A DNA stretch of 64,000 nt from Anaerosacchariphilus hominis (lineage in GTDB: Bacteria > Bacillota > Clostridia > Lachnospirales > Lachnospiraceae): assembly GCF_014290175.1 (NCBI RefSeq), contig NZ_JACOOR010000005.1, positions 214,669 through 278,668 of the forward strand. The letters run 5' to 3'. The notes under the pieces were generated by a model. The model was not told the DNA's origin and did no database searches. It saw only the letters and a program-made list of their open reading frames with translations. The translations under genes were made by a program, and so were the position numbers. Below, piece after piece: positions 10,128 to 18,762 of the stretch. Positions within the stretch are counted from its first letter, which is position 1, and each line of letters starts with the position of its first letter.

Positions 10128-11312
10128 ATGATTTATCTTGACAACGGCGCCACCACCTTTCCAAAACCGGACTGTGTCTGGGACGCCGTAGACCATTTTA
10201 ACCGTACGGCAGCAGTAAATGCGGGCCGGGGTGCTTATCAGGCCGCCCGGAAGGCCACCGCCATGATCCGGGAAGTACGGGAGCAGCTTATCAGCCTCTG
10301 TGACGCCCGGGAGCAGGCTCAGGTCATCCTGACCCCTTCCGTCACCATCGCCCTGAACCAGATTATCCAGGGGCAGCCCTGGACTTCTGATTCCGTGGCC
10401 TATGTATCGCCCTATGAGCATAACGCGGTACTTCGTCCTCTGAAGCTTCTGGAGAAACGCATAGGCATCCGGATACTGGAACTTCCGCTGTCCGAAGATC
10501 TTTCCATTGACCTGGAAAGCACCAGCGAAATGTTCCGTCAGACACCTCCGGATTTTGTCAGTGTCTCCGCCGTCAGCAATGTGACCGGCTACATTCTTCC
10601 GGCCCGGGAGATCTTTCTCATGGCCAAGGAATACGGTGCGTTTACCCTGTTGGACGCAGCCCAGGCCATGGGACTTTTGAAGCTGCGCTTCTCTTATCTT
10701 CGGGCCGACGCGATCACCTTTGCCGGACACAAGACTCTCTACGCGCCCTTTGGCATCGGCGGCTTTCTTCTGAAAAACGGCGTGGATCTCACAGAGCTCC
10801 TGGCCGGCGGCAACGGCATGAAGTCTTTAAGCGAAGAAATGCCCCTCTATATGCCCGAGAAAATGGAATGCGGCAGCATGGATACGCCTGCCATCGCAGG
10901 CCTTCAGGCTTCTCTTCAGTGGCTGAAAACCGCCCGTCCGAAAAAAATCGAGGATGAGCTGATGACATACCTGCTTCCCAAGCTCCGGGAAATTTCGGGA
11001 CTGCATCTTTATTGCGCACCGGATCCCACCCTTCAGGCAGGCGTCGTTTCTCTGAATCTGGATGGCTTTCGCGCCAACGAAGTGGGCGCGATTCTCGACA
11101 AGGAATGGAATATCGCTGTCCGGGCCGGCCACCACTGTGCAGCCCGCATTCACAGGCATTTGAAGGATCAGGAGTTTGACGGCACCGTCCGGGTAAGTAT
11201 CAGTGCTTTTACCACCCGGGAGGATCTGGACACTCTGGTAAAAGGTCTAAAGAGTATTGACCGAGAAATGTTGAAGGGGATTTCTTCCAGTGTGCTGCGT
11301 GGAAACTGCTGA
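10128..11312 (+). CDS. Class V aminotransferase, cysteine-desulfurase-like
   Basis: This 394-residue PLP enzyme of the NifS/CsdB type starts MIYLDNGATTFPKP. The PLP lysine is K202 in FAGHKTLY, and the sulfur-accepting cysteine lies in RAGHHCAAR near residue 340. It should mobilise sulfur or selenium from cysteine or selenocysteine. No IscU, YedF or SelD gene is beside it, so the acceptor is unknown. It follows a 145-base structured leader and is followed after 136 bases by a flavin/Fe-S oxidoreductase. The ATG has TTGGAG upstream. Confidence 0.85.
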   Translation: MIYLDNGATTFPKPDCVWDAVDHFNRTAAVNAGRGAYQAARKATAMIREVREQLISLCDAREQAQVILTPSVTIALNQIIQGQPWTSDSVAYVSPYEHNAVLRPLKLLEKRIGIRILELPLSEDLSIDLESTSEMFRQTPPDFVSVSAVSNVTGYILPAREIFLMAKEYGAFTLLDAAQAMGLLKLRFSYLRADAITFAGHKTLYAPFGIGGFLLKNGVDLTELLAGGNGMKSLSEEMPLYMPEKMECGSMDTPAIAGLQASLQWLKTARPKKIEDELMTYLLPKLREISGLHLYCAPDPTLQAGVVSLNLDGFRANEVGAILDKEWNIAVRAGHHCAARIHRHLKDQEFDGTVRVSISAFTTREDLDTLVKGLKSIDREMLKGISSSVLRGNC

Positions 11313-11358
11313 CAATCCAGAATCTCACCACATACGATTTGACTGCTATGGAAATCAC

Positions 11359-11384
11359 TTCTGTCACCCAGGGCAGAGACAGAA
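11359..11384 (+). repeat. 7-bp inverted repeat in the 11313-11448 spacer
   Basis: TTCTGTC (11359-11365) and GACAGAA (11378-11384) can form a hairpin with a 12-base loop, without a T-run. A 15-codon ATG frame starts just upstream at 11348, but nothing supports translation. The rest of the spacer shows only the AAAGGA site of the next gene. Confidence 0.35.
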
Positions 11385-11448
11385 ATCCCCTATGAGGATA
11401 CCTATATGCGCAAAAAGCATGTGCAGATCAAAGAAAGGAACTTATACT

Positions 11449-13395
11449 ATGAGCTACGAAAAATTATTTGAAAAGGGCCGCATCGGAACCATGGTCCTGA
11501 AAAACCGCGGCGTCATGATGCCCATGGCGACTGATATGGCCGACAAGGACGGCATCGTAACCCCCCGACAGATCCGCTATTATCAGGAGCGTGCCAAAGG
11601 CGGCATTGCTATGATCATCAACGAGTACACCGGCGTGGACGATGTAGACAGTATTCCGTCCATCCACAACCTGCGTATCGCCCGGGATTATCATATTTCA
11701 GAGATGGAGAAGCTGACCGACGCGGTTCATCTCTACGGCTGCAAGATTGTGGCCCAGATTCACCATGGCGGCGCCACCTCCAATCCGAATTTCACCGGAC
11801 GCCAGAACCTGGCTCCCAGTGCCGTTCCCATTGCGGAGGGCCGCCCTGTTCCGAAGGAAATGACCCTGGAGGATATCAAACGCGTTGAGCAGAAATTCAT
11901 CGACGCGGCCGTCCGCTGTCAGAAGGCTGGCTATGACGCAGTGGAGCTTCACGGAGCCCACGGCTATCTGATCGCCCAGTTCTTCAGCAAATACTATAAC
12001 CGCAGAACCGACGAGTACGGGGGAAGCGTGGAAAACCGCTGCCGCTTCATCGCAGAAATCATCGCCGGTATCCGTGCAAAGCTCGGACCCCGTTTTCCGA
12101 TTCTGGTCCGCATGTGCGGCGATGAGATGACCCCGGTGGACGGATTCCTGACCCTGGAGGACGGCCTGGAGATTGCAAAGTATCTGGAAAGCTGCGGCAT
12201 TGATGCCATCAATATCAGCAACGGCAGCGCCCGGAACGGCGATGCCAACTGCGAACCCTTCTCCTATCAGCCCGGCTGGAAAAAGCATGTGGCAAAGGCT
12301 TATAAAGAAGCCCTTCATATTCCGGTTATCGCCACCAACACCATTAAGGATCCGGACTTTGCTGAGTCACTTCTGGAGGAAGGAATCTGTGATTTCGTAG
12401 GTCTGGGCCGTTCCCAGCTGGCGGATCCGGATTTCATGAACAAGGCAAAGACCGGACACTCGGATGAAATCCGCAAGTGTATCGGCTGTCTCTACTGCCG
12501 GGAACGCGTACTGGGCCAGGGGCTTCCGATTCGCTGTGCCATCAACGCCCGCACTGCCCGGGAGGATGTATTTTCCCATATCCGAAAAGACGGTACCGGT
12601 AAAACCGCTGTGGTGGTCGGCGGAGGCCCTGCAGGTATGGAAGCGGCGCGCGTATTGGCTCTGCGTCAGTTCCATGTGGTGTTATTTGAAAAAGAGACTC
12701 AGCTCGGCGGTACACTGAATGTGGCCGACAAGCCCGCCTTCAAGGATAAGCTGACCAGACTGGCTCGGACTATGGAGACCCAGATCCGTCACCTGGGCGT
12801 GGAGATTCGTCTGGGCACCGCCGCTACACCGGAGCTGGTAAGCGCTCTGAATCCGACAGGTGTCATCGTTGCCTGCGGCGCAGAGCCGGTCATTCCGCCT
12901 CTTCCGGGCATCCGGCAGAGTCATGTCTGCACAGCAGAGGATGTTCTCACCGGCAAAGCAGCCCCCAGCGGACAGGTAGCTGTCATCGGTTCCGGTCTGA
13001 CCGGTCTTGAAACTTCCGAGATGCTTTTAAGCCGCGGTCTCTCCGTCTCCATCATCGAGATGGCTGATCAGATGGGACCCGGCATCTTCGGTGCTATCCG
13101 AAATGACGAGCTCAGCCGTATCCTGCCCCACAACCCGGGTGTATACACCGGCCACAAACTGCTTTCCATCGAAGAAAAGACCGTAACACTGGAAAGGACG
13201 GAGGATCACAGCACCGTAGTTCTGCCTGCGGATTCCGTCGTTCTGGCTTTGGGCGTACGGCCCCGCTCCGCTCTGGCTGAAAGCTTCGAGAGCTGCTGTT
13301 CCCAGGTACATGTCGTCGGCGACGCGCGCAAGGGCGGCAGAATCGCCACAGCGGTACGGGAAGGTTTTGAGGCCGCTTATATTTTCGAGGCATAA
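11449..13395 (+). CDS. Old-yellow-enzyme family NADH:flavin oxidoreductase (2,4-dienoyl-CoA reductase type)
   Basis: This 648-residue, three-part enzyme has an FMN-binding TIM barrel (about 1-335, with HHGGA and ELHGAHGYL motifs), an Fe-S motif with C344, C347, C350 and C363, and an FAD/NAD module (about 380-640, VVVGGGPAGMEAARV). Family members reduce activated C=C bonds, for example in enoyl-CoAs or bile-acid intermediates. The substrate cannot be read here, and no bai genes are nearby. The frame extends to 11290 inside the upstream gene, but the ATG at 11449 with AAAGGA is preferred. It is followed by a strong terminator. Confidence 0.9.
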   Translation: MSYEKLFEKGRIGTMVLKNRGVMMPMATDMADKDGIVTPRQIRYYQERAKGGIAMIINEYTGVDDVDSIPSIHNLRIARDYHISEMEKLTDAVHLYGCKIVAQIHHGGATSNPNFTGRQNLAPSAVPIAEGRPVPKEMTLEDIKRVEQKFIDAAVRCQKAGYDAVELHGAHGYLIAQFFSKYYNRRTDEYGGSVENRCRFIAEIIAGIRAKLGPRFPILVRMCGDEMTPVDGFLTLEDGLEIAKYLESCGIDAINISNGSARNGDANCEPFSYQPGWKKHVAKAYKEALHIPVIATNTIKDPDFAESLLEEGICDFVGLGRSQLADPDFMNKAKTGHSDEIRKCIGCLYCRERVLGQGLPIRCAINARTAREDVFSHIRKDGTGKTAVVVGGGPAGMEAARVLALRQFHVVLFEKETQLGGTLNVADKPAFKDKLTRLARTMETQIRHLGVEIRLGTAATPELVSALNPTGVIVACGAEPVIPPLPGIRQSHVCTAEDVLTGKAAPSGQVAVIGSGLTGLETSEMLLSRGLSVSIIEMADQMGPGIFGAIRNDELSRILPHNPGVYTGHKLLSIEEKTVTLERTEDHSTVVLPADSVVLALGVRPRSALAESFESCCSQVHVVGDARKGGRIATAVREGFEAAYIFEA

Positions 13396-15061: not shown

Positions 15062-15090
15062 ACTATACCACAGGATTGTTTTTTTGTCAA
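15062..15090 (-). promoter_or_regulatory. Promoter of the cyclase-AhpD operon
   Basis: TTGACA (15085-15090), 17 bases, then TATAGT (15062-15067) on the minus strand: a near-perfect housekeeping promoter. It lies downstream of the GGGtGRT terminator, so the two units are separate. Confidence 0.85.
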
Positions 15091-15156
15091 TACCTTATTT
15101 TATATATAGGAATTATAGGTTTGACACTTTAATGTGACACGGTGTTTCCTATAGAC

Positions 15157-15203
15157 AAAAAAGAAAGCACCCACCAAAACTCTCCGGTGAGTGCCTTCTT
15201 ACT
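15157..15203 (-). terminator. Terminator of the GGGtGRT operon
   Basis: A long stem (about 15161-15174 with 15186-15200, G-U pairs allowed) is followed by TTTTTT on the minus strand, 26 bases after the GGGtGRT stop codon. Confidence 0.85.
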
Positions 15204-15228: not shown

Positions 15229-16239
15229 TTAGAACTTGCCAGCGTCGGCTGCTTCCTGAACAGCTACTGCAACTGCAACAGTCATACCAACCATCGGGTT
15301 GTTACCAGCGCCGATGAGACCCATCATCTCTACGTGAGCCGGTACGGAGGAAGAACCTGCAAACTGAGCGTCAGAATGCATACGTCCCAGAGTATCGGTC
15401 ATACCGTAGGAAGCCGGTCCTGCTGCCATGTTGTCCGGATGAAGGGTACGTCCTGTACCGCCGCCGGATGCTACGGAGAAGTACTTCTTGCCTGCCTCCA
15501 GGCGCTCCTTCTTGTAAGTACCTGCTACCGGATGCTGGAAACGGGTCGGGTTGGTAGAGTTACCGGTGATGGATACGTCTACATTCTCCTTCCACATGAT
15601 AGCTACGCCTTCCGGAACGCTGTTTGCGCCATAGCAGTTAACCTTTGCGCGAAGTCCCTCGGAGTAAGCCTTGCGGAATACTTCCTTAACCTCGTTGGTG
15701 TACGGATCGTACTCAGTCTCAACGTATGTAAATCCATTGATTCTTGCGATAATCTGAGCAGCATCCTTTCCAAGACCGTTCAGGATAACACGCAGCGGCT
15801 TCTGACGAACCTTGTTTGCCTTCTCTGCAATACCGATAGCGCCCTCTGCTGCTGCAAAGGACTCATGGCCTGCCAGGAATGCGAAACACTCAGTCTCCTC
15901 TTCCAGAAGCATCTTGCCCAGGTTACCATGTCCCAGACCTACCTTACGTGTATCTGCTACAGAACCCGGAATACAGAAAGCCTGAAGGCCCTCTCCGATA
16001 GCTGCTGCAGCGTCTGCTGCCTTGCGGCAGTTTTTCTTGATTGCGATGGCTGCGCCTACGATGTATGCCCAGCAAGCGTTCTCAAAACAGATCGGCTGGA
16101 TGCCCTTGATCTGGTTGTATACGTCCAGGCCTGCATCCTTAGTGATCTTCTCAGCTTCCTCGATGGAAGCGATGCCATAGCTGTTCAGAACAGCGTTAAT
16201 CTTATCAATACGTCTTTCATATGATTCAAATAATGCCAT
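15229..16239 (-). CDS. GGGtGRT family protein
   Basis: This 336-residue protein of unknown function is named for its conserved motif, seen here as GGGTGRT at residues 259-265, followed by LHPDNMAAGPASYGM. Other notable stretches are GLGHGNLGKML (101-111), FLAGHESFAAAEGA (121-134) and NCYGANSVPEGVA (201-213). No signal peptide or membrane segment is seen, so it is cytoplasmic. It follows an iron-sulfur scaffold-like gene by 19 bases, the pairing I know for this family. That pairing suggests work on a metal cluster or a cysteine-linked intermediate, but no activity is established. Confidence 0.85.
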   Translation of the reverse strand: MALFESYERRIDKINAVLNSYGIASIEEAEKITKDAGLDVYNQIKGIQPICFENACWAYIVGAAIAIKKNCRKAADAAAAIGEGLQAFCIPGSVADTRKVGLGHGNLGKMLLEEETECFAFLAGHESFAAAEGAIGIAEKANKVRQKPLRVILNGLGKDAAQIIARINGFTYVETEYDPYTNEVKEVFRKAYSEGLRAKVNCYGANSVPEGVAIMWKENVDVSITGNSTNPTRFQHPVAGTYKKERLEAGKKYFSVASGGGTGRTLHPDNMAAGPASYGMTDTLGRMHSDAQFAGSSSVPAHVEMMGLIGAGNNPMVGMTVAVAVAVQEAADAGKF

Positions 16240-16258
16240 TTTTCATCTACCTCCTCGA

Positions 16259-16951
16259 TTACTCTTTACGCGGGTCAATGATCTTAACCGCATCTGCTAC
16301 ACGGCCATACTGACCTTTCGCCTTTTCCCATGCAGTGTTCGGGTCATCACCCTTCTTGATAAAGTCTGTCATCTTGCCAAGAGAAACGAACTGGTATCCG
16401 ATAATCTGGTCTTCTGCGTCCAGAGCGATGCCTGTTACATAGCCCTCTGCCATCTCCAGGTAACGGGGTCCCTTCTTCAAAGTACCGTACATGGTACCAA
16501 CCTGAGAACGAAGTCCCTTTCCAAGATCCTCCAGACCTGCGCCTACTGCAAGTCCATCCTCAGAGAATGCGGACTGGGAACGTCCGTATACGATCTGCAG
16601 GAACAGCTCACGCATAGCGGTATTGATAGCATCACATACAAGGTCTGTGTTCAGAGCCTCCAGTACAGTCAGGCCCGGCAGAATCTCGGACGCCATAGCT
16701 GCGGAATGGGTCATACCGGAACATCCGATAGTCTCCACCAGTGCCTCCTGGATCACGCCTTCCTTTACATTCAGGGTCAGCTTACATGCTCCCTGCTGCG
16801 GTGCACACCAGCCAATGCCGTGTGTAAAGCCGGAAATATCTTTAACTTCCTTCGCCTGTACCCATTTTGCTTCTTCCGGAATCGGAGCGGCGCCATGGTG
16901 TACGCCCTGTGCTACCGGACACATCATCTCGACTTCATGTGAATAAATCAT
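16259..16951 (-). CDS. Iron-sulfur cluster assembly scaffold-like protein (NifU-type)
   Basis: This 230-residue protein has a NifU/IscU-like N-terminal region and cysteines C11, C49, C56 and C77. The C77 segment GCSGMTHSAAMASE resembles the scaffold GCxxSxAS motif. The C-terminal third (YVTGIALDAEDQIIGYQF onwards) is not part of a standard IscU. The ATG at 16951 with AAAGGAG is chosen over an in-frame extension to 17008. No desulfurase is beside it. It is co-transcribed with the GGGtGRT gene, so the two may form a dedicated pair rather than the housekeeping SUF system. Confidence 0.8.
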   Translation of the reverse strand: MIYSHEVEMMCPVAQGVHHGAAPIPEEAKWVQAKEVKDISGFTHGIGWCAPQQGACKLTLNVKEGVIQEALVETIGCSGMTHSAAMASEILPGLTVLEALNTDLVCDAINTAMRELFLQIVYGRSQSAFSEDGLAVGAGLEDLGKGLRSQVGTMYGTLKKGPRYLEMAEGYVTGIALDAEDQIIGYQFVSLGKMTDFIKKGDDPNTAWEKAKGQYGRVADAVKIIDPRKE

Positions 16952-17097
16952 TTTAAAACTCCTTTCAGAATGGATTAATAGCGACCCGGGGTGGCTTAAG
17001 TCCCGCATTGTCGCATTTGGTTATATTTTCGCACATTCTGACGGATTCGTAAAGTCCTTTTTTCATAAAAAACACAGGAGCCATGAAAAATATTGCA

Positions 17098-17137
17098 AAC
17101 GGCCCGCCGGAGTTCTCCCGGCAGGCCGCTTTTCTTC
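17098..17137 (-). terminator. GC-rich terminator after the riboswitch-controlled oxidoreductase
   Basis: Arms about 17099-17110 and 17117-17129 form a GC-rich stem 44 bases beyond the FAD-enzyme stop codon. The T-run is weak on the minus strand (TTTG) and better on the plus strand. The rest of the 16952-17180 gap must hold the scaffold-gene promoter, but I find no convincing -35/-10 pair. Confidence 0.6.
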
Positions 17138-17180: not shown

Positions 17181-18590
17181 TCACTTCTCTTCTGCCAGCT
17201 TCCGTCCCATGAGCACGCCCATGACAGAAGCCATCATCAGACCTCTGGTCCATCCGCTGGAATCACCCAGGCAGTACAGGCCCTTGACGTTGGTCACAAA
17301 GTCCTCGGTCATCTTGATCCGGTTGCTGTAGAACTTAAGCTCCGGAGAGTACAGCAGGGTCTCATTGGCCGCAAAGCCCGGTACCACATGATCTACAGCC
17401 TGGATAAAATTGATAATATTGGTCATGGCACGATAGGGCATGGCCGCGGTAATGTCACCTGCCACCGCATCCGGCAGGGTAGGCCGCACGTTGGACTGGG
17501 ACAGTTCCTTCTGCCAGGTTCTTTTGCCGCTTAAGATATCTCCGTAGCGCTGCACCATAATCTTTCCGTCTCCCAGCATATTCGTCAGCTCGCCCACTTT
17601 CTGTGCGTAGGCGATGGGCTGGTTGAAGGGATAGGTAAAGTTATGGGAACAGAGAATCGCCAGGTTTGTGTTATTGGACTTCAGATCCTTGTAAGAATGT
17701 CCATTTACCACCGCCAGATCGTTGTCGTAGTTCTCCTGACTTACAAAGCCTCCCGGATTCTGGCAGAAAGTACGCACCTTATTCTTAAAAGGCAGGGGAT
17801 AGCCGATGAGTTTGGACTCATAGAGCACCTTATTCACATCCTCCATGATCTCATTACGGACCTCTACTCGCACGCCGATATCCACGGTACCCGGCTGATG
17901 GGCGATATCATGCTGCTCACAGAGCTTCTCCAGCCAGTCTGCGCCCTTGCGGCCGGTGGCCACGATGACGTGATCCGCGTAAATCACCTGCTGGTTCGTT
18001 CCCTTGCCGGAATCCTCGATGACTGCGCCCTTGCAAACCTCATCCTCCACGATGAGATCGCTGCAGTGGCTGTCAAAAAGGATCTCCACGCCGTGCTCCA
18101 ACAGATACTGCTCAATGCGGAAATAGATCTCCTGGGCCTTCTCGGTTCCCAGATGGCGAATGGGACAGTCCACCAGCTTCAGGCCCGCCTGGATGGCGCG
18201 CTTCCGGATATCCTTAACCTCTTTTTCATTGCCGACGCCCTCCACATGGGTATCCGCACCGAACTCCAGATAGATTTGATCCGCGTAATGAATGGTCTCC
18301 TGAGCCAGATCCTCACCGATGAGGGCAGGCAGATCGCCGCCCACCTCATAGCTTAAGGACAGCTTTCCATCAGAAAAAGCGCCTGCACCGGAAAATCCAG
18401 TCGTAATATTACAATAGGGCTTACAATTTACACACTTCTTCGTCTTTGCCTTGGGACAGGAACGCTTCTCCACCGACTTACCCTTCTCCACGATGGTGAT
18501 AGTCTTTTTACTTCCCTTTTTCAAAAGCTCCAGGGCGGTAAAGATACCCGCCGGTCCTGCTCCGATAATCAATACATCTCTTTTTGCCAT
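17181..18590 (-). CDS. NAD(P)/FAD-dependent oxidoreductase under purine-riboswitch control
   Basis: This 469-residue flavoprotein of unknown substrate starts MAKRDVLIIGAGPAG, a dinucleotide-binding Rossmann motif. A Cys cluster C45, C53, C56, C60 follows, suggesting an Fe-S or zinc site, then GAGAFSDGKLSLS (69-81), a signature shared with the 539-residue paralog at 48598-50217. The C-terminal part has a second FAD segment, YCLGDSSGWTRGLMMA. The ATG at 18590 with GGAGG is chosen. The gene is alone and preceded by its own promoter, a purine aptamer and a terminator, so guanine-type purines should repress it. A link to purine metabolism is implied but not known. Confidence 0.85.
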   Translation of the reverse strand: MAKRDVLIIGAGPAGIFTALELLKKGSKKTITIVEKGKSVEKRSCPKAKTKKCVNCKPYCNITTGFSGAGAFSDGKLSLSYEVGGDLPALIGEDLAQETIHYADQIYLEFGADTHVEGVGNEKEVKDIRKRAIQAGLKLVDCPIRHLGTEKAQEIYFRIEQYLLEHGVEILFDSHCSDLIVEDEVCKGAVIEDSGKGTNQQVIYADHVIVATGRKGADWLEKLCEQHDIAHQPGTVDIGVRVEVRNEIMEDVNKVLYESKLIGYPLPFKNKVRTFCQNPGGFVSQENYDNDLAVVNGHSYKDLKSNNTNLAILCSHNFTYPFNQPIAYAQKVGELTNMLGDGKIMVQRYGDILSGKRTWQKELSQSNVRPTLPDAVAGDITAAMPYRAMTNIINFIQAVDHVVPGFAANETLLYSPELKFYSNRIKMTEDFVTNVKGLYCLGDSSGWTRGLMMASVMGVLMGRKLAEEK

Positions 18591-18612: not shown

Positions 18613-18657
18613 AAAAAAACTGCCCCAGCAGATGGTATACTTCTCCCTTGCGGGCAG
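18613..18657 (-). terminator. Expression-platform terminator of the purine riboswitch
   Basis: On the minus strand CTGCCC (18652-18657) pairs with GGGCAG (18620-18625), followed by seven T (18613-18619). The 3' strand and its T-run can instead pair over 8 bases with AAACTGCC in the aptamer P3 stem, giving a mutually exclusive fold. Confidence 0.85.
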
Positions 18658-18720
18658 CTTATAGTCAACTGTTACGGCAGTTTGTAGAAACATTCATCCA
18701 ATTATGAATTTATATAAGTC
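18657..18720 (-). ncRNA. Purine riboswitch aptamer (guanine class by C74)
   Basis: The minus-strand sequence folds as the purine aptamer. P1 is CTTATA with TATAAG. J1/2 contains TATAA. P2 is ATTCAT with ATGAAT, with loop GG. J2/3 is GTTTCTAC, identical to xpt. P3 is AACTG with CAGTT, with loop CCGTAA. J3/1 is GACTAT. The loop GG and CC can make the known loop-loop pairs. The specificity base in GACTAT is C, which indicates guanine or hypoxanthine rather than adenine; a 2'-deoxyguanosine variant cannot be excluded. Confidence 0.92.
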
Positions 18721-18732
18721 CGAACCTTTTCT

Positions 18733-18762
18733 ATTCTAACGGATCCTGCGTAGTCCTGTCAA
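18733..18762 (-). promoter_or_regulatory. Promoter of the riboswitch-controlled gene
   Basis: TTGACA (18757-18762), 18 bases, then TAGAAT (18733-18738) on the minus strand. The start site near 18726 places the aptamer at the very 5' end of the transcript. Confidence 0.8.

What the first reader, a model, noticed from the sequence alone, without database searches (positions are those of the whole stretch)
18613..18762. Purine riboswitch in front of an uncharacterised FAD oxidoreductase
The 5' leader folds into all core parts of the purine aptamer (J2/3 GTTTCTAC, J3/1 GACTAT, loop GG and CC) with the guanine-type cytosine. A terminator follows whose 3' strand can also pair with P3. The gene it controls (17181-18590) has no known link to purines, so the riboswitch ties this flavoprotein family to guanine, hypoxanthine or deoxyguanosine supply. 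The aptamer class is established knowledge; the biological link is inference.
Basis: partly seen in the sequence, partly recalled or inferred. Interest (0 to 1): 0.75.

Follow-up and report, generated by a model that had tools for sequence, protein, structure and literature searches.

The report
Guanine-type riboswitch switching on flavoprotein gene
A gut bacterium's uncharacterised FAD enzyme gene starts with a real purine-sensing RNA switch that probably turns the gene on when guanine-like bases are plentiful, and the same pairing recurs across related bacteria, which links this enzyme family to purine use.

Summary
Rfam RF00167 matches 18642-18737 (-) at 46.8 bits (gathering 37), behind a TTGACA-18-TAGAAT promoter-like site and before a U-tract hairpin. 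The pocket is the ordinary guanine type (C74, U51).

The association recurs. In 299 genomes drawn from the family of a close relative, 18 of 82 purine riboswitches sit in front of this FAD protein, second only to guanine deaminase (29 of 82). They lie in three deeply split subfamilies; presence or absence needs at least 15 changes on an 88-row tree. Of the 80 closest homologue loci, 5 without the switch have xpt or purA within 4 kb.

In 20 of 22 FAD leaders the terminator's 5' arm lies inside the aptamer, the layout of an ON switch; 25 of 29 high-scoring class-level controls look OFF. The window leader also has a weaker OFF-type hairpin, so it is not decisive alone.

Most likely guanine or hypoxanthine induces a probably Fe-S-bearing flavoenzyme used in purine metabolism. 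The reaction is unknown. The paper searches made listed nothing on this gene link.

The parts
18733..18762 (-). sigma-70-type promoter-like site TTGACA-18-TAGAAT
   Evidence: 11 of 12 consensus matches; consensus match only, start site not measured
18642..18737 (-). RF00167 purine aptamer match, full model
   Evidence: 46.8 bits, gathering 37; 79.2 bits with own model R1 (window is one of its 43 source sequences)
18658..18718 (-). aptamer core P1-P2-P3: P1 18718-18713 with 18663-18658; P2 18709-18704 with 18697-18692; J2/3 18691-18684; specificity base C74 at 18664
   Evidence: sequence
18617..18683 (-). terminator hairpin whose 5' arm (AAACUGCC, 18683-18676) is the P3 5' strand plus part of loop L3; its 3' arm runs into the U-tract; excludes the aptamer (ON layout)
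   Evidence: -23.5 kcal/mol; pairing kept by double changes in relatives
18613..18619 (-). U-tract of seven T
   Evidence: sequence
18619..18658 (-). weaker alternative hairpin CUGCCC/GGGCAG starting at the end of P1 (OFF layout); strongest downstream-only hairpin of the 22 FAD leaders (next L130, -14.1; the rest no stronger than -5.1)
   Evidence: -13.6; -15.6 kcal/mol
17181..18590 (-). controlled gene: 469-aa FAD-dependent oxidoreductase, PF21688 FAD-depend_C, with four invariant Cys (44, 52, 55, 59)
17097..17131 (-). terminator-like hairpin after the gene, so the unit is probably monocistronic
   Evidence: 7 such sites found in the 5.3-kb region, 4.1 expected by chance

Best explanation
It is a guanine-I type purine riboswitch that acts as a transcriptional ON switch for a stand-alone FAD oxidoreductase gene. 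As RNA polymerase leaves the promoter, the aptamer folds first. Without ligand, the later strand GGGCAGUUU pairs with the P3 5' strand and L3 (AAACUGCC), pulls the aptamer apart and forms a terminator. With guanine or hypoxanthine bound, P1 and P3 hold, that hairpin cannot form and the gene is transcribed. The enzyme is therefore made when free purine bases are plentiful and takes part in using or breaking them down. Shown by computation: aptamer, promoter-like site, alternative hairpins, recurrence with the gene, neighbouring purine genes. Inferred: ligand, ON direction in the cell, enzyme role.
For: RF00167 above gathering. 18 of 82 RF00167 hits in 299 genomes precede this FAD gene; 178 of 299 genomes hold the gene at E <= 1e-30. 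Those are three subfamilies (71-92%, 50-56% and 39-43% identity to the window protein in the printed list), and at least 15 gains or losses are needed on an 88-row tree, 9 forced by starred branches, so the link was renewed or kept many times. ON layout in 20 of 22 FAD leaders against 1 of 29 class-level controls. Terminator pairing with P3/L3 is kept by double changes; window against L084 changes C-G to A-U and G-C to A-U at two positions. Growing-transcript folding: all 17 aptamer pairs are in the minimum-energy fold at 73-93 nt, none from 97 nt; -28.6 against -23.1 kcal/mol with the aptamer enforced at 113-117 nt. The other main targets in the same family are guanine deaminase, purine permeases, BMP lipoproteins and XdhA (representatives named). 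Beside riboswitch-less relatives: xpt in L048, L077, L079; purA in L042, L047; xpt next to the FAD gene in G055 and G224, and one gene away in G188, whose FAD gene has the switch.
Against: The window leader can also form a -13.6 to -15.6 kcal/mol hairpin behind a folded aptamer, which would give an OFF switch; L130 looks OFF and L091 has no T-run by rule. Only 18 of 178 genomes with the gene carry the switch, and among the 80 closest homologue loci only 4, so the enzyme works without it in most of the species seen. Of the 18 genomes with a switched FAD gene 4 have the guanine deaminase, the same share as in the whole set (66 of 299), and only 5 of 21 have diaminopropionate ammonia-lyase above cut-off (a sixth, G002, has a piece of one), so no fixed purine-degradation pathway goes with it. 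The BMP-type ABC transporter beside L047, L062 and L077 has no proven substrate: its nearest NCBIfam names are putative B6 transporters, below cut-off. No ligand binding, expression or enzyme assay exists here.
Confidence: 0.68

Rival explanations
1. OFF switch: with ligand bound, the aptamer is held and the downstream hairpin CUGCCC/GGGCAG (18658-18619) terminates transcription, while the P3-pairing hairpin acts as antiterminator. The gene would then be a purine-supply gene repressed by guanine.
For: The hairpin exists in the window at -13.6 to -15.6 kcal/mol and is compatible with a folded aptamer; guanine riboswitches commonly reduce expression (PMC9295807, results parts 1-2 of 3 read) and 25 of 29 controls here look OFF.
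Against: The close relatives L081, L084 and L135 lack it (downstream-only best 0, 0 and -5.1 kcal/mol) and keep the P3-pairing hairpin at -31.4 to -32.0. The P3-pairing hairpin itself runs into the U-tract and so looks like a terminator, not an antiterminator.
Confidence: 0.2
2. The purine signal is only a proxy. The enzyme does something unrelated to purine bases (for example general redox or flavin balance, since flavins derive from GTP) and the switch was captured as a nutrient sensor.
For: The gene is common (178 of 299 genomes) and mostly not riboswitch-controlled; no fixed purine pathway goes with it; most FAD genes among the 80 homologue loci have no purine neighbour (74 of 80 by the reference set).
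Against: xpt and purA recur next to it in relatives without the switch; the other main purine-switch targets in the same family are purine genes.
Confidence: 0.25
3. The aptamer has shifted ligand (xanthine, 8-oxoguanine or 2'-deoxyguanosine) as in the described variant classes.
For: Variants with unusual genes have been found to have new ligands (PMC9295807); position 73 departs from A in 4 of 21 FAD rows.
Against: The window keeps U51, C74 and A73 and has no J2/3 or J3/1 insertions, unlike xanthine-II and guanine-II as described in PMC9295807.
Confidence: 0.1

Closest known systems
Guanine-I riboswitch (RF00167, B. subtilis xpt type)
   Same: Three-stem junction, J2/3 GUUUCUAC, J3/1 GACUAU with C74, loop-loop GG/CC
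   Different: Controls a flavoprotein of unknown function; terminator layout predicts ON instead of the usual OFF
Adenine pbuE riboswitch (comparison recalled, not run)
   Same: Aptamer and terminator exclude each other, so ligand turns the gene on
   Different: C74, guanine type, instead of U74
Guanine-II and xanthine-II riboswitches (PMC9295807)
   Same: Purine scaffold, predicted ON polarity, targets in purine salvage or degradation
   Different: Those carry junction insertions (and U51G in xanthine-II); absent here
VP0956 of Vibrio parahaemolyticus, PDB 3nlc (uncharacterised)
   Same: The only PDB sequence match (E 1.3e-27) and the best fold match (TM 0.71)
   Different: Only 23% identical over the structural alignment; function unknown too

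Membership tests
Guanine-I riboswitch aptamer (RF00167) | Match above the family gathering score | tested here: met
   46.8 bits against 37
Guanine-I riboswitch aptamer (RF00167) | P1, P2, P3 supported by covariation among relatives | tested here: met
   93.0% of cells paired, 17 of 18 pairs with double changes, 0 of 500 shuffles; the window's own first P3 pair is A-G
Guanine-I riboswitch aptamer (RF00167) | Pocket bases U51 and C74, no junction insertions | tested here: met
   criteria from PMC9295807 sections read
Guanine-I riboswitch aptamer (RF00167) | L2-L3 loop contact bases GG/CC | tested here: met
Guanine-I riboswitch aptamer (RF00167) | Binds guanine or hypoxanthine | not testable with these tools
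   needs in-line probing
Transcriptional ON riboswitch | Terminator 5' arm overlaps the aptamer | tested here: met
   window -23.5 against -15.6 kcal/mol for a downstream-only hairpin; 20 of 22 FAD leaders ON, 25 of 29 controls OFF
Transcriptional ON riboswitch | No terminator left when the aptamer is folded | tested here: inconclusive
   window keeps a -13.6 kcal/mol hairpin; 19 of the 21 other FAD leaders have nothing stronger than -5.1, L130 has -14.1, L091 has no T-run
Transcriptional ON riboswitch | Ligand increases read-through | not testable with these tools
   needs transcription assay
PF21688 FAD-depend_C proteins | Domain above the curated cut-off | tested here: met
   48.1 bits against 27
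NCBIfam named flavoenzymes (32 families matched) | Score above any equivalog or subfamily cut-off | tested here: not met
   none of the 25 listed comes near its cut-off; 7 of 32 not shown
Reductive uric acid pathway gene set | Pathway marker ygeX (TIGR01747) in the same genome | tested here: not met
   5 of 21 genomes above cut-off

The most novel reading that the evidence does not exclude
A flavin- and probably Fe-S-dependent enzyme, present in most genomes sampled from this family of gut bacteria, performs an undescribed anaerobic redox step on a purine base or purine-derived compound. Many lineages put it under a guanine-triggered ON riboswitch, in some genomes as the only purine riboswitch found.
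Probability: 0.35. Interest if true: 0.78.

Novelty: new member of a known kind. Interest (0 to 1): 0.6.

Why it matters
Riboswitches are among the best clues to the function of unknown genes. A flavoprotein family without any assigned reaction, found in 178 of 299 genomes sampled from one bacterial family, is tied to purine bases by two lines: recurrent riboswitches and recurrent neighbouring purine genes. The predicted polarity says the enzyme is for using purines, so the substrate search narrows to purine bases and their products. Gut anaerobes' handling of purines bears on host uric acid.

Tried and rejected
A false-positive aptamer was rejected. A cryptic aptamer in front of riboswitch-less FAD genes was looked for and not found: of 60 loci (taken from the 160 genomes whose FAD gene has no switch; about 600 bp upstream, less where the contig ends), the single hit (L235) belongs to the following xpt gene. 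A role tied to the reductive urate pathway or to guanine deaminase was considered and is not supported as a general rule. An operon with the downstream NifU-like and GGGtGRT genes is unlikely because of the hairpin at 17131-17097, though L003 and L004 keep the same order without a riboswitch. My first polarity count was inflated by branched structures; the second used a boundary 2-3 nt too far downstream and so hid the window's own OFF-type hairpin. Both are superseded; only the shuffle control is still cited. One search corrected, where minus-strand loci had not been turned round.

Limits of the counts. The gene after a riboswitch is the longest same-strand ORF of 100 aa or more starting within 600 nt (else 900 nt) of the aptamer start. 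Genome searches score only part of the first-look candidates (150 per genome, 12), so hits can be missed. The class-level controls are the 30 loci returned, which are the best-scoring hits; 1 of 30 (L186) was not parsed and was dropped. The T-run rule leaves out 1 of 22 FAD and 4 of 29 guanine-deaminase leaders. The printed place lists are cut off by the tool, so adjacency counts from them are lower bounds. The tree warns of long branches that meet. A weak amidohydrolase match near L013 (26% identity) was not counted as a purine gene.

Full report
What is there. On the minus strand a promoter-like site (18762-18733) is followed by an RF00167 purine aptamer at 18642-18737 (46.8 bits, gathering 37), a hairpin with a seven-T tract (18683-18613), and the gene 17181-18590. 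The gene encodes a 469-aa FAD protein with PF21688 above cut-off. It comes near no listed NCBIfam cut-off (25 of 32 families shown), and its only PDB sequence match is the uncharacterised VP0956, 3nlc, also the best fold match. Four cysteines (44, 52, 55, 59) are invariant across two subfamilies that are 38-40% identical (27 sequences), which suggests an Fe-S cluster; that is inference. The AlphaFold model is only moderate (mean pLDDT 75.3, below 50 around the cysteines), so no site was read from it.

How special is the association. The 80 closest homologue loci in public genomes contain the riboswitch in 4 (L001, L002, L005, L039; own model R1). Six of these homologues' genomes were searched for RF00167: 4 have exactly one hit, and by position it is the FAD leader; 2 (those of L003 and L004) have none. 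A survey of 299 genomes drawn from the family of G001, the genome of L001 (Lachnoclostridium sp. An138; the tool does not name the family, Lachnospiraceae is my inference), gave 82 RF00167 hits in 65 genomes. I read the gene after each hit (regions, analysis, L161 added): guanine-deaminase-like 29, this FAD protein 18, AzgA-like purine permease (PF00860) 8, BMP lipoprotein 7, XdhA-like 5, MATE 3, xanthine permease pbuX-like 2, xpt 2, other 6, contig end 2. Names rest on representatives scanned (xpt); 'AzgA-like' is recalled; the deaminase scores 373.8 bits against a cut-off of 375.4, so it is named by resemblance. The FAD gene itself is in 178 of the 299. With an assumed 2,800 genes per genome, chance would put about 0.02 of the 82 switches in front of it; 18 are.

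Evolution. Rows with the switch are scattered over three subfamilies. On an 88-row tree (22 with the switch; 66 without, a chosen part of those known) at least 15 changes are needed, 9 of them forced by starred branches, fewer than for shuffled labels (mean about 20). It is a quick tree with long branches that meet; it cannot separate gains from losses. Sixty riboswitch-less upstream regions show no weakened aptamer of their own.

Independent purine context. In 5 of 80 homologue loci xpt or purA lies within 4 kb: xpt in L048, L077, L079, purA in L042 and L047. BMP-type ABC transporter genes lie beside the FAD gene in L047, L062 and L077 (6 of 80 loci in all). Their substrate is not known: NCBIfam's nearest names are putative B6 transporters, below cut-off; a nucleoside role is inference from the BMP lipoproteins that purine riboswitches control (7 of 82). 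In the 299-genome set xpt is adjacent in G055 and in G224, where xpt's own riboswitch lies between the genes, and one gene away in G188. Printed lists are cut off, so these are minimum counts. In the other direction, 74 of the 80 loci show none of the reference purine genes and the FAD gene has no widely conserved neighbour.

Polarity. I compared the best unbranched hairpin ending at the U-tract when its 5' arm may lie in the aptamer with the best one starting after J3/1. FAD leaders: ON 20, OFF 1 (L130), no T-run 1 (L091) of 22. Guanine deaminase: ON 19, OFF 3, unclear 3, no T-run 4 of 29. XdhA: ON 4, OFF 1 of 5. MATE: ON 3 of 3. xpt: ON 2 of 2. pbuX-like: ON 1, no T-run 1 of 2. Purine permease: ON 4, OFF 2, unclear 2 of 8. 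BMP lipoprotein: ON 2, OFF 4, unclear 1 of 7. High-scoring class-level controls (by eye from the translations: guaB, purE, guaA, xpt and permease leaders): OFF 25, unclear 3, ON 1 of 29. So the method separates the two kinds, and the FAD leaders are mostly ON. Pairing of the P3 5' strand and L3 with the terminator 3' arm is kept through double changes. Folding of the growing window transcript puts the complete aptamer in the minimum-energy fold between 73 and 93 nt and none of it after 97 nt. Against this, the window has its own downstream hairpin of -13.6 to -15.6 kcal/mol which a folded aptamer would allow; L081, L084 and L135, its nearest rows with the switch, do not. I therefore put ON at about 0.75 for the window.

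Function. The other targets of purine switches in this bacterial family are largely uptake, deamination and oxidation of purines, which fits induction by purines. But 4 of the 18 genomes with a switched FAD gene also have the guanine deaminase, no more than the 66 of 299 overall, and 5 of 21 have the urate-pathway marker ygeX above cut-off. The enzyme is therefore not a fixed part of those routes. The reductive urate pathway papers (PMC12507026, passages only; PMC12990295, part 1 of 2) mention no such protein in what I read; the second notes that the physiological electron donor of the first enzyme is still unknown, which is a lead only.

Literature. PMC9295807 (abstract and opening; results parts 1 and 2 of 3; concluding remarks) gives the pocket criteria, says that guanine riboswitches commonly reduce expression when guanine is plentiful, and describes ON-type variants; a term search of its main text for FAD, flavo and oxidoreductase found none. 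Passages only were seen of PMC11477304 and PMC3519856. Searches for purine or guanine riboswitches with FAD-dependent proteins, guanine deaminase or flavoproteins, and for COG2509, listed no paper whose title or abstract start describes this link; one search listed 10 of 264 papers, most listed papers were not opened, and the library holds open-licence papers only. The assignment of this protein to COG2509 and the comparison with the adenine pbuE switch are recalled, from no call.

Noticed in passing
L097, L098, L106, L113, L118, L119 and others (guanine deaminase leaders): Position 73 of J3/1 is T or C in 12 of 29 guanine-deaminase leaders, against non-A in 4 of 21 FAD leaders; possibly a pocket variant.
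   Followed up: no
family-level set: In the sampled genomes guanine deaminase is the commonest target of purine riboswitches (29 of 82), and mostly in the ON layout (19 of 29).
   Followed up: partly
window 15229-17008 (-): NifU-like gene (weak match, below cut-off) plus GGGtGRT gene directly after the FAD gene; the same order in L003 and L004. A near-consensus promoter-like site and a strong hairpin lie after them at 15062-15200.
   Followed up: no
L007:5556-5719: TwoAYGGAY RNA (RF01731) right after the FAD gene in a goat-gut relative.
   Followed up: no
L161 (G070): The FAD gene behind this riboswitch has one in-frame TGA.
   Followed up: no
window 11290-13395 (+): Old-yellow-enzyme/Fe-S flavoenzyme resembling BaiCD and bilirubin reductase, below their cut-offs.
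   Followed up: no
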